A stretch of DNA of 64,000 nt from Desulfospira joergensenii DSM 10085 (lineage in GTDB: Bacteria > Desulfobacterota > Desulfobacteria > Desulfobacterales > Desulfobacteraceae). Every line of letters starts with the position of its first letter. The first letter of the stretch is position 1. The notes beneath the pieces are model-generated. The model was given only the letters and a program-made list of their open reading frames with translations. It was not told where the DNA came from and searched no databases. The stretch lies in NCBI RefSeq assembly GCF_000420085.1, contig NZ_ATUG01000001.1, forward strand, positions 434,001 to 498,000, given 5' to 3'. Made by a program: the position numbers and the translations under genes. This document shows positions 16,667 through 31,009 of this stretch, in pieces.

Positions 16667-16859
16667 CTCCCTGATGATGGATTCGGGCATGGATTCGGCC
16701 ATTATCGATCCGCTGGATGCCAAAATCATGGCCACCATCCGAACGGCTGACATGCTGCTCTCCCATGACGATTATTGCATGAACTATCTGAAAAGGGGTT
16801 CGGGCCGGCGCCATTGTAAGTTAAATTTATAGGCTGTTCCACCCAATCCGATGCTGCTG
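16667..16859 (+). pseudogene. 3' fragment of a pterin-dependent methyltransferase gene (duplicate of 30794-30985)
   Basis: These 193 nt match the end of the intact methyltransferase gene and its trailer at 30794-30985 with three substitutions and one extra A near 16791-16794, about 98% identical. The extra base breaks the frame. Homology starts abruptly at CTCCCTGATGATGG. The fragment has the same orientation as the intact gene, so the two copies form a direct repeat about 14.1 kb apart that encloses the whole demethylation island. The rest of the gap (16509-16666) shows nothing recognisable. Confidence 0.9.
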
Positions 16860-16881
16860 ACCGTTTTTCGGCATCAGCATC
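16850..16881 (+). terminator. Hairpin behind the methyltransferase fragment
   Basis: GATGCTG (16850-16856) pairs with CAGCATC (16875-16881), with inner pairs including CCG/CGG around a T5 loop. It occupies the place of the hairpin behind the intact copy (30971-31009), though the distal arm differs. Confidence 0.4.
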
Positions 16882-16914: not shown

Positions 16915-17375
16915 TCAAGAAATTTTAAAATACTTTGTATCAGAATGAAGCATGATATGGGTTTCGGTAAAAGAAATATTTTCAATCTTACTGAGTCCAC
17001 CGCCAAAAATAAAATTATTCAGATCATTTACAGAATCAACCAATACCTCCAGAAAGAGATCATATTTGCCTGTTGTAACCCAAACTGAATTTACCTCGGG
17101 TAGCTTCTCTATTTCAGCAATCGTTTCAGTATGGGATCTGGTTATCAAATTTATACCCAGCAAGGCACTTACCTTATTTGAGAAAACAAATGGGTTTATG
17201 CGGACTTCCAGGTTAAGGATATTTTTTTTAGCAATCGGTTCACCCTATTGTCAATAATGCCCTCTGATACACCCAGATCTTTTGCAATGCTTTTATAAGG
17301 CCTCCTTGCATCAATCTGAAGGGCTTTTATGATATTTATCTCTATATCATCCAAATTGTAATCTATTAATGCCAT
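16915..17375 (-). pseudogene. Lrp/AsnC-family regulator split by a -1 frameshift at an A8 run
   Basis: The first frame starts at 17375 (MALIDYNLDDIEINIIKAL) and holds the AsnC-type helix-turn-helix (YKSIAKDLGVSEGIIDNRVN). It then reaches CTA AAA AAA ATA and would stop soon after. In the -1 frame the protein continues NILNLEVRINPFVFSNKV, then the ligand-binding RAM domain (LPEVNSVWVTTGKYDLFLEV) to 16915. With the shift the product is 153 residues, a normal Lrp length. The shift point is A_AAA_AAA, a canonical slippery heptamer within eight A's (17222-17229), so the gene may still be expressed by ribosomal or polymerase slippage. It is divergent from mttB1, the usual layout for a local regulator. 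Confidence 0.75.
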
Positions 17376-17580
17376 TTTTATTTCCTTCCATTTATTTAAC
17401 CATGAGAAAAATAGTTTTGTCTAAGGGTTCTAAGGAATGTGTATATATCCTTTTTATATAAAATATAGTAATTTTTCTAAATACATCATAAATTTAATAG
17501 CTATAAAATTCAAATTATGGAATTTAGAACGTATTATTCCTACCAAAGCACATCTTCCTAAAAAAAGAACATGCATTTTT

Positions 17581-17623
17581 ATGAATAATCCATATTTTTT
17601 ATCAAAAAATATGGATTATTCAT
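17581..17623. promoter_or_regulatory. 43-nt perfect AT-rich palindrome upstream of mttB1
   Basis: Two exact 20-nt inverted arms (17581-17600 and 17604-17623) flank a 3-nt ATC centre. The site lies in the 366-nt gap between the divergent Lrp-like gene and the first mttB gene, 19 nt upstream of a -35 hexamer. Operator for the Lrp-like protein is the most natural role; a terminator for readthrough is an alternative. The surrounding 17380-17640 is strikingly AT-rich compared with the rest of the window. Confidence 0.55.
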
Positions 17624-17642
17624 AAAAAATAAATAATTTTAC

Positions 17643-17741: not shown

Positions 17742-19202
17742 ATGATAAACTCCGGATCGACACAAGTATCGAGACCCCATTTAAAAATTTTAACCGAAGA
17801 CCAAATTTTTGAAATAAAACGCGCTGCCTTTGATATTATGTTCAGTGTCGGTTTCAAGGTGTTGCATGCCGGCGCAAGGGACATGCTCAAGAAGGCAGGC
17901 GCCGTTGTGGAAGGTGAGCATGTAAGGGTTCCTGAATATATTGTTAAACAATGTTTGGTCACGGCACCAAATGGATTTACCTTGTATGACCGTTTGGGAA
18001 ACCGGGCCCTTGAAATAGAAGGTCGTAAAAGTTATTTTGGCACCTCCACCGGAAGCCCCAGAACAAAGGATGCACTGACCGGGGAAATTCATCCCACAAC
18101 CGTTAAAGATATTGGTATCGGTGCGCGAGTTGCAGATGCCTGTGAAAACATTGACTGGGTCATGCCCATGGGCTCATCCCAGGATGTTCCTTCTATTGCG
18201 TCGGATCTTTACGATTTTGAAGCGGTTGTCACCAATACGACAAAACCAATTGTTTTTCTGGGGTATTCCGGCAGAGGAACCCAGCTGGTATTTGAAATGG
18301 CAGCTGAAATTGCCGGTGGAATGGACAAACTCAGGCAAAAGCCGTTTCTTGCGGTCTATCCTGAACCCATCAGTCCCCTTGTTCAGCCGGATGAAACCAT
18401 TGATCGTATATTTGCTGCTGCGGATCATTTTATTCCCCAGGTGCCGGGACCTGCCGTCCAGATGGGCGCCACAGGCCCGATTACCATGGCGGGTGTTATT
18501 ACGATGATCACCGCAGAATCATTGATGTGCCTGGTATTGGCCCAGCTAAGGCAACCCGGATGTCCGGTTTGCCTCAGCGGGAATGTCCAGATTTTAAATA
18601 TGGCATCAGGTGTCTTTGGTGTCGGATATCCGGAAATGAGTCTTGGTATATCTGCCCAGGCAGAAGTTGCCCAATCCTTTAATTTGCCAACCTGGGGGTA
18701 TGCAGGCTGCAGCGATTCAAAAGTACTGGATGCCCAGGCAGGTCTTGAAAGCGGATTTTCCATCATCACCCAGGCCCTTGCCGGGCTCAACCTGATCCAT
18801 GATGTGGGGTACCTTGATCAGGCCATGGTCTGTTCCACAGCTCAACTGATATTGGGGAATGAGGCCATCGGGATGGCCCGAAAATTCATGGAAGGCATCC
18901 GGGTGGACCCGGAAAGCATCGCCCGGCAGGTGATTGAAGATATCGGTCCCGGAGGTCATTTTCTGGCCCACAAACACACCCTGACCCATTGCCGAGAAGC
19001 TGTCTGGGGTTCAAAACTGCTGACCCGGGAACCCTATGAACGCTGGAAGGCAAACGGTGAAAAGGATATGGCACAAAGAATTCAGGAACGCCTGGCCGAT
19101 ATCCTTGAGAATCACAAGGTACCGCCTTTGCCGGAAAAAGTTCTGACAAAAATCAGGAAAATACGGGATGCGGGTGTTAAAGAGCTGACGGCAAAAGAAT
19201 AA
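17742..19202 (+). CDS. MttB-family (trimethylamine methyltransferase-like) corrinoid methyltransferase 1
   Basis: 486 residues of the MttB superfamily TIM barrel. These enzymes move a methyl group from a methylamine or betaine to a corrinoid protein. The frame has no internal TAG, so this is a non-pyrrolysine member, like those acting on quaternary amines such as glycine betaine or carnitine. Recognisable segments include RKSYFGTSTGSP, VQMGATGPITMAGV, SLGISAQAEVAQS and the IEDIGPGGHFLAHKHTL segment near the C-terminus. GAGGAG lies 6 nt before the ATG at 17742. It heads the island and has a promoter and a palindrome upstream. The substrate cannot be read from sequence alone. Confidence 0.88.
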   Translation: MINSGSTQVSRPHLKILTEDQIFEIKRAAFDIMFSVGFKVLHAGARDMLKKAGAVVEGEHVRVPEYIVKQCLVTAPNGFTLYDRLGNRALEIEGRKSYFGTSTGSPRTKDALTGEIHPTTVKDIGIGARVADACENIDWVMPMGSSQDVPSIASDLYDFEAVVTNTTKPIVFLGYSGRGTQLVFEMAAEIAGGMDKLRQKPFLAVYPEPISPLVQPDETIDRIFAAADHFIPQVPGPAVQMGATGPITMAGVITMITAESLMCLVLAQLRQPGCPVCLSGNVQILNMASGVFGVGYPEMSLGISAQAEVAQSFNLPTWGYAGCSDSKVLDAQAGLESGFSIITQALAGLNLIHDVGYLDQAMVCSTAQLILGNEAIGMARKFMEGIRVDPESIARQVIEDIGPGGHFLAHKHTLTHCREAVWGSKLLTREPYERWKANGEKDMAQRIQERLADILENHKVPPLPEKVLTKIRKIRDAGVKELTAKE

Positions 19203-19474: not shown

Positions 19475-20974
19475 TCATCCTGTGGCAGCAAACAACTCCT
19501 TTTGCCCATCTTCTTTTTTCATTGGTTTATGCCTTGTTCCGGCCATTTCAATCAACAATGTTACGATAGTCGTCAGAGTTGATCGGACAATCACACCATG
19601 CTGGCTTCTTACCCGTGTTTGTTCGAGGCCTTCTCTTTTTTTCATCAGATTAAAGGGCCTTTCACAGTTTTTCCGGATCTCGATTGCGTCTTGAGATCCG
19701 CTATGAAAAATCGGCATTGGTTGAAAATAGCCGCTGTCAAAATCAACGATCCTTGATTTTGAACAATTTGATTCAAACGCACACTCACCCGGAACGGCAT
19801 CACATCCAAATTCGTGGCCTTCCGGTGTCGATCCCAAAAACTGCATTGGAATCTCACAAGAATCATTACAGGCAACCCTTAATGGCGATTCCAAAACGTT
19901 GTCAGGAAGTTTGGCTTTCTCCGATGCAGGGGTGACGACATAGACACCGGTTTCGTTGAGAACCGAACCATCACTATCGTGATAAGCCTGGTCGGCGGTT
20001 ATCAATTTGATATCAATACCCAATGTTTGAGCAAGCTTGATCAACGGTTTTAAAAACAGGCTGTCATGATGATTTGCCGCCCCGATTAGGGATACCAATG
20101 GAAAACTATGGCCTGTCGATGGGTTGATGGCTGTTAGGGTGTGAAGCCGGTAGCCAATGACGTAATACGATTTATCCCTTTTATTCCGGCGTTTTCCACA
20201 ATCACAGTCCGGATCGGAATACATTCGTATTTTTTTGCCTTTGACCTGAATTGTGCAAAGGGGGTAATTGATTTCAGACGGCAGTTCACTGGAATCAACA
20301 CCATGGATAACGGCACTCTCCAGACAGCCTGATTTATAAAAATGATGGAGGAAATATACCAGGACATTCATCAATTGTTTGAAATTCAGGCCACGCCGGA
20401 AGTGACACAATTCAGTATGATCTGCCTGGTGTTTGGTATTTAAAGGCAGTCTCACAAAACGCCTGTTTTGCTTTCGTTCCCTGCCAAAATATTCATCGCT
20501 GCAAAATTTCCTGTAACTGATTTCAGGGTATTTGATTATTTTTAAAAGCTCCATCCGAAATAACTGGTAGGGTTGAATATCCCTGTGCACAGCGGAATAT
20601 CCGTCAGGCGCAATCAAGCTGTTGATAATCTGGTTGTCTATAAGTTGGTCAACAAACTGCAATTCCGGGTCTACAATTTCAGGGTATGGCTTTTTCAGGG
20701 TGTCAAAATGAAACAGGTTGTCGGAATGAAAATTTTCAATGTAGGACGCCATCTCAGGAAGGCTACGAATCTCTGCTGAGGGGGCCTGATCTTCAACTCC
20801 TATGAGTTCTTCGATGGGGATGTCCAAGGTTTGAGAATAATCATAATTATCCAAAACTTCCATCATGATTTGCTTTGTCAGCTCTTTTTTGGACTTCCTT
20901 GTCATCTTTTTCCAGTTCGGAAAACTCTTTTTCAATTGCTTTGTGATGATTCGCCTGATATTTTTTGTATGCAT
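19475..20974 (-). CDS. DDE transposase of the IS element (IS4/IS1182-like)
   Basis: 499 residues. A basic N-terminus is followed by a DDE/RNase-H-like catalytic core. Candidate catalytic aspartates are in HGVDSSELP and ITADQAYHDSDG, and a glutamate in a late NLMKKREGLEQTR segment, spaced as in IS4-type transposases. Cysteine-rich stretches (DPDCDCGKRRNK; CAFESNCSKSR) resemble those of IS1182-type enzymes. The frame is intact, so the element may be active. The exact IS family is not certain. Confidence 0.85.
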   Translation of the reverse strand: MHTKNIRRIITKQLKKSFPNWKKMTRKSKKELTKQIMMEVLDNYDYSQTLDIPIEELIGVEDQAPSAEIRSLPEMASYIENFHSDNLFHFDTLKKPYPEIVDPELQFVDQLIDNQIINSLIAPDGYSAVHRDIQPYQLFRMELLKIIKYPEISYRKFCSDEYFGRERKQNRRFVRLPLNTKHQADHTELCHFRRGLNFKQLMNVLVYFLHHFYKSGCLESAVIHGVDSSELPSEINYPLCTIQVKGKKIRMYSDPDCDCGKRRNKRDKSYYVIGYRLHTLTAINPSTGHSFPLVSLIGAANHHDSLFLKPLIKLAQTLGIDIKLITADQAYHDSDGSVLNETGVYVVTPASEKAKLPDNVLESPLRVACNDSCEIPMQFLGSTPEGHEFGCDAVPGECAFESNCSKSRIVDFDSGYFQPMPIFHSGSQDAIEIRKNCERPFNLMKKREGLEQTRVRSQHGVIVRSTLTTIVTLLIEMAGTRHKPMKKEDGQKELFAATG

Positions 20975-30149: not shown

Positions 30150-30950
30150 ATGTTTGAAGTAATAGGCGAAAGAATCAACACCTCCAGAAAACTGGTTCAG
30201 GCCGCCGTGGCAGCGCGGGATGCTGCCTATATTATCGATGATGTAAAAAAACAACAGGCGGCCGGGGCCAACTTTATTGATGTGAATGCCGGTGCCCGCA
30301 TCGGCCATGAAGAAGAGGACATGCGCTGGCTGCTGGACACCATTCAGCCCATTTCCACCGTGCCCCTCACCCTGGACAGCCCGGACCCGGCCGTCCTGGA
30401 AATGGCCTTTAAGATGGTGGAAAAGACCCCCATGATCAACTCCATCAGCCTGGAACGAGACCGATTTGATGCCATGATGCCTTTTCTCGAAGGAAAAGAA
30501 TGCAAGGTGATTGCCCTGTGCATGGACGATGCCGGCATGCCCGGCTCTGCCGCTGACATTTTGAACCGGGCCAGGGAACTTGTGAAAGCACTCAACAAGA
30601 TCGGTATTCCCACGGGATCCATCTATATGGACCCCCTGGTCCAGCCCATCAGCACCGATTCGAACAAAGGGGTCATGGTGCTGGATGCTGTCCGGGCCAT
30701 CAAGGCTGCTTTTCCCGAAGTTCACATCACCGGCGGCCTGTCCAACATCTCGTACGGGTTGCCCCAGCGTCATATCATCAACCGAACCTTTGTCTCCCTG
30801 ATGATGGATGCGGGCATGGATTCGGCCATTATCGATCCGCTGGATGCCAAAATCATGGCCACCATCCGAACGGCTGACATGCTGCTCTCCCATGACGATT
30901 ATTGCATGAACTATCTGAAAGGGGTTCGGGCCGGCGCCATTGTAAGTTAA
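30150..30950 (+). CDS. Methylcorrinoid:tetrahydrofolate methyltransferase (MtgA/AcsE-like)
   Basis: 266 residues, a pterin-binding TIM barrel as in MtgA, AcsE and MtrH-type proteins. Visible are FEVIGERINTSRKLV, the GANFIDVNAGARIGHEEEDM segment, VPLTLDSPDPAVLE and HITGGLSNISYGLP. It moves the methyl group from the corrinoid protein to tetrahydrofolate, feeding the methyl branch of the Wood-Ljungdahl pathway, which many Desulfobacterales use to oxidise C1 units. The last ~155 nt and the trailer are duplicated at 16667-16859. It is the final gene of the island. Confidence 0.92.
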   Translation: MFEVIGERINTSRKLVQAAVAARDAAYIIDDVKKQQAAGANFIDVNAGARIGHEEEDMRWLLDTIQPISTVPLTLDSPDPAVLEMAFKMVEKTPMINSISLERDRFDAMMPFLEGKECKVIALCMDDAGMPGSAADILNRARELVKALNKIGIPTGSIYMDPLVQPISTDSNKGVMVLDAVRAIKAAFPEVHITGGLSNISYGLPQRHIINRTFVSLMMDAGMDSAIIDPLDAKIMATIRTADMLLSHDDYCMNYLKGVRAGAIVS

Positions 30951-30970
30951 ATTTTTAGGCTGTTTCACCC

Positions 30971-31009
30971 AATCCGATGCTGCTGCCCATTCACCCGCGG
31001 CATCGGATT
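30971..31009 (+). terminator. Hairpin after the methyltransferase gene
   Basis: AATCCGATGC (30971-30980) and its exact complement GCATCGGATT (31000-31009) form a 10-bp stem with a 19-nt loop, 20 nt after the stop. No strong U tract follows. Confidence 0.5.

What the first reader, a model, noticed from the sequence alone, without database searches (positions are those of the whole stretch)
16915..17375. Lrp/AsnC gene with a canonical A_AAA_AAA slippery site exactly at its frame break
The helix-turn-helix and ligand-binding domains of the regulator are in different frames joined at CTA AAA AAA, within eight A's. A -1 slip gives a 153-residue protein of normal length with no missing residues. 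Such a site could make two proteins: a full regulator, and a truncated DNA-binding domain that would compete. It could also simply be a recent deletion or a sequencing error in a homopolymer.
Basis: partly seen in the sequence, partly recalled or inferred. Interest (0 to 1): 0.65.

Follow-up and report, generated by a model that had tools for sequence, protein, structure and literature searches.

The report
Broken regulator gene at poly-A run
An ordinary gene-control protein of a marine-type sulfate reducer is split by one missing base in a run of A's, either a recent mutation or a sequencing slip, and nothing in its relatives suggests that the split is a designed way to make two proteins.

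Summary
On the minus strand, window 16915-17375 encodes an Lrp/AsnC regulator whose HTH half (frame 0, 17375 to 17196) and ligand-binding half (frame -1) meet at CTA AAA AAA inside an A8 run (17222-17229).

The programmed-frameshift reading is not supported. All 17 comparable homologues in the bacterial family, including an intact paralogue in the same genome, are single uninterrupted frames. So is the closest relative (L037/L059, 78% identical, same divergent mttB neighbour), which carries its own A8 in frame. The heptamer A_AAA_AAA is common here: 78 in-frame copies in 65 called genes of 464 kb. There is no unusual downstream structure, and the weak SD-like stretch upstream is shared with the intact orthologue. 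Both halves show purifying selection (dN/dS about 0.18 and 0.13 against the orthologue), so the break is recent, artefactual, or still partly rescued by slippage.

Best reading: a singleton one-base loss at the gene's longest homopolymer. No other A/T run of 8 or more with readable coding on both sides was convincingly broken (0 of 46), so rampant homopolymer error is unlikely, but an isolated error cannot be excluded without reads. The gene divergently flanks a methylamine/betaine-type methyltransferase cluster, which it probably regulates. Ordinary; low interest.

The parts
16915..17375 (-). Lrp/AsnC-type regulator gene, split into two frames
   Evidence: 71% identical to the intact paralogue L001, 78-79% to L037/L059
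17196..17375 (-). Frame 0 part: 59-aa ORF with the AsnC-type helix-turn-helix; last 8 codons are out-of-frame tail
   Evidence: PF13404 1.9e-11
16915..17226 (-). Frame -1 part: ligand-binding (RAM) domain, no start of its own near the junction
   Evidence: PF01037 5.1e-13
17222..17229 (-). A8 run (T8 on +), place of the frame break; contains A_AAA_AAA
17384..17389 (-). GGAAGG, plausible ribosome-binding site of the regulator
   Evidence: sequence
17576..17628 (.). Perfect inverted repeat, 25-bp arms and 3-base centre, in the divergent intergenic region; candidate operator, unique in the genome
17643..17655 (+). TTGACACATAAAA block (-35-like), also present upstream of the divergent gene in L037 and L032
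   Evidence: read from the intergenic sequences printed
17742..19202 (+). Divergent mttB-family methyltransferase, intact, probable regulatory target (486 aa)
   Evidence: 91% identical to L037 copy

Best explanation
This is an ordinary, single-frame Lrp/AsnC regulator gene that has lost one base at its A-rich junction (an A9 contracted to A8, or the base next to an A8), either as a recent replication-slippage mutation in this strain or as an isolated base-calling error. It is not a programmed frameshift. If the deletion is real, translation mostly stops after 59 residues, leaving a HTH without its ligand-binding and oligomerisation domain (inferred: little or no regulator). Incidental slippage on the A run may restore a small amount of full-length protein. 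Shown: the break, the intact homologues, the conservation of both halves. Inferred: recency, loss of function, control of the neighbouring mttB cluster. Undecided: real mutation (about 0.5) or sequencing error (about 0.4).
For: 17 homologues at E<=1e-30 in the family, all without internal stops, against one split copy here. Junction codons of the homologues read show no frame break and no A run except L037/L059, which carry GTG AAA AAA AAT in frame. Synteny with divergent mttB in L037 supports orthology. dN/dS with L037: HTH 0.157/0.871, RAM 0.110/0.870, with no stop codon in the downstream 102 codons, so any neutral period has been short. A8 is the gene's longest homopolymer. Antonov et al. 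2013 (PMC3711429): unclustered frame-broken genes with homologues are expected to be sequencing errors or recent indels. An intact paralogue sits beside what looks like another mttB-family gene in the same genome (L001/L031), so loss may be tolerated.
Against: No other run of 8 or more A/T with readable coding on both sides is convincingly broken in 464 kb (0 of 46), which lowers the pure error reading. Window-specific changes at otherwise invariant sites are not clearly raised (6 of 76, against 6 of 76 in L002 and 2 of 72 in L037), so long-standing loss of function is not visible. The heptamer lies exactly at the break, as it would for a slippage site.
Confidence: 0.9

Rival explanations
1. 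Sub-case of the best reading: sequencing or assembly error. The true genome has one more base and the gene is intact.
For: Both halves are under purifying selection up to the present. Homopolymers are the classic error site, and Antonov et al. 2013 expect homology-validated singletons to be mostly errors.
Against: 0 of 46 other A/T runs of 8 or more with coding on both sides are broken; 87 such runs lie inside called genes, including 15 of 9 or more. The survey is blind to AT-rich genes like this one, and the platform is unknown.
Confidence: 0.4
2. Compensated indel: the deletion is real, but RNA-polymerase or ribosome slippage on A8 restores enough full-length regulator that the gene is still functional and selected.
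For: Both frames remain conserved. Slippage rescue on poly(A) is documented in insect endosymbionts (12-50% of transcripts corrected, PMC5009743), and 8-A IS elements of Deinococcus and Nostoc are taken to be productive (PMC1088944). A_AAA_AAA shifts above 0.10% in E. coli without a stimulator (PMC4066793).
Against: The documented bacterial cases are mostly runs of 9 or more, or long runs in AT-rich reduced genomes. The present conservation is explained as well by a very recent break. No stimulator.
Confidence: 0.08
3. Programmed -1 frameshifting or slippage that purposefully makes a full regulator and a competing 59-aa HTH fragment.
For: A_AAA_AAA in the right frame, and an AGGGTG SD-like stretch 11 bases upstream (duplex energy -6.9).
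Against: No homologue has the break. The intact L037 has the same upstream stretch with the same energy, so it reflects the NRVN codons. Downstream fold z = -0.87, and the 60-nt fold ranks in the ordinary range of the gene. 78 in-frame copies of the heptamer occur in called genes. Lrp-family proteins dimerise largely through the lost domain (own knowledge), so the short product is a poor competitor.
Confidence: 0.03
4. Phase-variable contingency locus: the A run length switches the regulator on and off among cells.
For: Homopolymer at the break, and a regulator gene (sequence).
Against: A8 is short for switching; in other genera the run is absent, and in L037 it is A8 in frame with no break. 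No strain-level data.
Confidence: 0.04

Closest known systems
Lrp/AsnC (FFRP) transcription regulators
   Same: AsnC-type HTH plus RAM/AsnC ligand-binding domain in correct order, normal length if both frames are joined; divergent from a catabolic cluster
   Different: Coding sequence interrupted by a one-base loss at A8
dnaX programmed frameshifting (E. coli A_AAA_AAG; Thermus A9 transcriptional slippage)
   Same: A-rich slippery heptamer in frame, SD-like bases about 11 nt upstream
   Different: Not conserved in any homologue; no significant downstream hairpin; here the shift gives the longer product, and relatives encode that product in one frame
Singleton frame-broken genes of Antonov et al. 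2013 (GeneTack)
   Same: One broken member among intact homologues, homology covers both frames
   Different: No distinguishing feature; this is the category it fits
Poly(A) indels rescued by slippage in Buchnera/Blochmannia
   Same: Indel at poly(A) with both frames still conserved
   Different: 50% GC genome of 6.1 Mb, only A8, rescue not shown

Membership tests
Lrp/AsnC regulator | AsnC-type HTH at the N terminus | tested here: met
   PF13404 1.9e-11 in the 59-aa piece
Lrp/AsnC regulator | C-terminal AsnC ligand-binding (RAM) domain | tested here: met
   PF01037 5.1e-13 in the -1 frame piece
Lrp/AsnC regulator | Both domains in one open reading frame | tested here: not met
   Stop after codon 59 in frame 0
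Programmed -1 ribosomal frameshift | X_XXZ_ZZN heptamer in frame at the break | tested here: met
   CTA AAA AAA; but 78 such sites in 65 called genes
Programmed -1 ribosomal frameshift | Frame break and slippery site conserved among homologues | tested here: not met
   17 homologues uninterrupted; junction codons
Programmed -1 ribosomal frameshift | Downstream stem-loop or pseudoknot stimulator | tested here: not met
   z -0.87 and -1.62 for 102 and 62 nt; ordinary among 60-mers of the gene; pseudoknots not modelled
Programmed -1 ribosomal frameshift | Upstream SD-like stimulator | tested here: inconclusive
   AGGGTG, -6.9 kcal/mol, but identical in intact L037 and set by conserved NRVN codons
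Programmed -1 ribosomal frameshift | Both products made in the cell | not testable with these tools
   needs reporter assay or proteomics
Programmed transcriptional slippage | Conserved long A/T run (about 9 or more) in homologues | tested here: not met
   run present only in L037/L059, as A8 in frame
Phase-variable gene | Run-length polymorphism among cells or strains | not testable with these tools
   no reads and no second strain of this species held

The most novel reading that the evidence does not exclude
The A8 break is real and has become a lineage-specific slippage switch in which a low, fixed fraction of full-length regulator is made from a frame-broken gene, lowering control of the adjacent methyltransferase cluster.
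Probability: 0.04. Interest if true: 0.45.

Novelty: already known. Interest (0 to 1): 0.08.

Why it matters
It matters mainly as a caution: a perfect slippery heptamer at a frame break is what a one-base loss in a homopolymer produces, and one search of relatives separates the two readings. For annotation, the gene should be treated as a possible pseudogene or an error to be re-read, and the regulator of the neighbouring betaine/methylamine-type cluster may be absent or replaced by its paralogue in this strain.

Tried and rejected
Programmed -1 frameshifting: rejected on non-conservation and ordinary context. Long-dead pseudogene: rejected because there is no stop in 102 downstream codons and dN/dS is about 0.13. 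Rampant homopolymer error in the assembly: a self-trained frame model on 464 kb found no other convincing break at runs of 8 or more; the single flagged A8 (215681 in the concatenated stretch) lies at a gene junction. That model does not recognise this AT-rich gene as coding, so it is not informative for AT-rich genes. The genome and its sequencing platform could not be named: the one genome-contig scan may leave out near records, and papers did not help. The first tree included a wrong row (rnpA from L061) and was redone; support for the nearest grouping (window, L037, L002) is only 88/87. A first mttB comparison was off by a base and was redone.

Full report
Observation. The gene lies on the minus strand, 17375 down to 16915. 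Frame 0 gives 59 residues with an AsnC-type helix-turn-helix; the -1 frame from the A run gives the AsnC ligand-binding domain. The joint is CTA AAA AAA in an A8 run at 17222-17229. A -1 shift there gives a 153-residue protein that aligns end to end with relatives.

Relatives. A search of 58 related genomes and then of the 86 held genomes of the family found 17 homologues at E <= 1e-30, every one without an internal stop; this copy is the only split one. The closest is in a Desulfobacula metagenome-assembled genome (L037; identical in sequence to L059), 78-79% identical and with the same divergent mttB next to it. At the junction it reads CTC GTG AAA AAA AAT ATC: one frame, with its own A8. 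The window reads TTG CTA AAA AAA ATA TCC, one base shorter. Other homologues read CTG ATC CAG CAG GGC ATT or similar, with no A run. So the frame break belongs to this genome alone among those held, and the A run is a local accident of lysine codons.

Is the site special? In 464 kb of this genome the in-frame heptamer A_AAA_AAA occurs 78 times in 65 called genes, 20 of them followed by another A. The 102 nt downstream fold no better than shuffles (z -0.87; 62 nt z -1.62). An AGGGTG lies 11 nt upstream and could pair with the anti-SD (-6.9 kcal/mol), but intact L037 has the same bases and energy, because they encode the conserved NRVN. The features of dnaX-type programming that can be tested here are therefore absent or uninformative.

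Age of the break. Against L037, dN and dS are 0.157 and 0.871 for the HTH part and 0.110 and 0.870 for the ligand-binding part. There is no stop in the 102 downstream codons. If the gene had been neutral for much of its branch, dN would be far higher than 0.125 in total. So the deletion is recent, or it is not in the genome at all, or slippage still rescues the protein. Changes at otherwise invariant positions (T2A, L11I, S26P, T40I, A58V, I116V) are no more numerous than in L002.

Mutation or error. A frame model trained on the 464 kb finds 87 A/T runs of 8 or more inside called genes. Of 46 with clear coding on both sides none is convincingly broken; the only one flagged sits at a gene junction. 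Homopolymer errors are therefore not rampant, but one isolated error remains possible and reads are not available. The model is weak for AT-rich genes such as this one (GC 0.35 in a 50% GC genome; L037's copy is 0.34, so the low GC is shared). Antonov et al. 2013 (PMC3711429) class such singletons as sequencing errors or recent indels.

Function. The regulator is divergent from a cluster of mttB-family methyltransferase, an IS transposase, FAD oxidoreductase, second mttB-family protein, TRAP transporter, threonine dehydrogenase, glycine C-acetyltransferase-like enzyme, corrinoid protein and methyltetrahydrofolate methyltransferase. Relatives L037 and L032 keep the regulator beside parts of this cluster, and a TTGACACATAAAA block is found in the intergenic regions of the window, L037 and L032. 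Regulation of this cluster is the natural inference. An intact paralogue (L001, 71%) next to another gene that looks like an mttB-family member (read from its N-terminal sequence, not tested) lies about 209 kb away in the same genome and might cover for it.

Verdict. An ordinary regulator gene with a single-base loss at its longest homopolymer. Programmed frameshifting is improbable (about 0.03), and low-level accidental rescue is possible but unproven.

Noticed in passing
17576-17628: Perfect 25-bp inverted repeat with a 3-base centre between the divergent regulator and mttB, unique in the genome; L037 has only a shorter AT-rich palindrome in its intergenic region. Candidate operator.
   Followed up: partly
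16667-16865 and 30794-30991: 199-bp direct repeat, 97% identical: the 3' end of the methyltetrahydrofolate methyltransferase gene is duplicated just downstream of the regulator, with a one-base insertion, flanking the whole 14-kb cluster. Suggests a past tandem duplication or recombination.
   Followed up: partly
19475-20974: Transposase (weak match to IS1182/DDE_Tnp_1) inserted between the first mttB and the FAD oxidoreductase; in L032 the oxidoreductase lies directly next to the regulator, without it.
   Followed up: no
16915-17375 and L037 6001-6462: The regulator gene is unusually AT-rich (GC 0.35) in a 50% GC genome while the neighbouring mttB is 0.49; the orthologue shows the same contrast (0.34 against 0.465), the same-genome paralogue does not (0.49).
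   Followed up: partly
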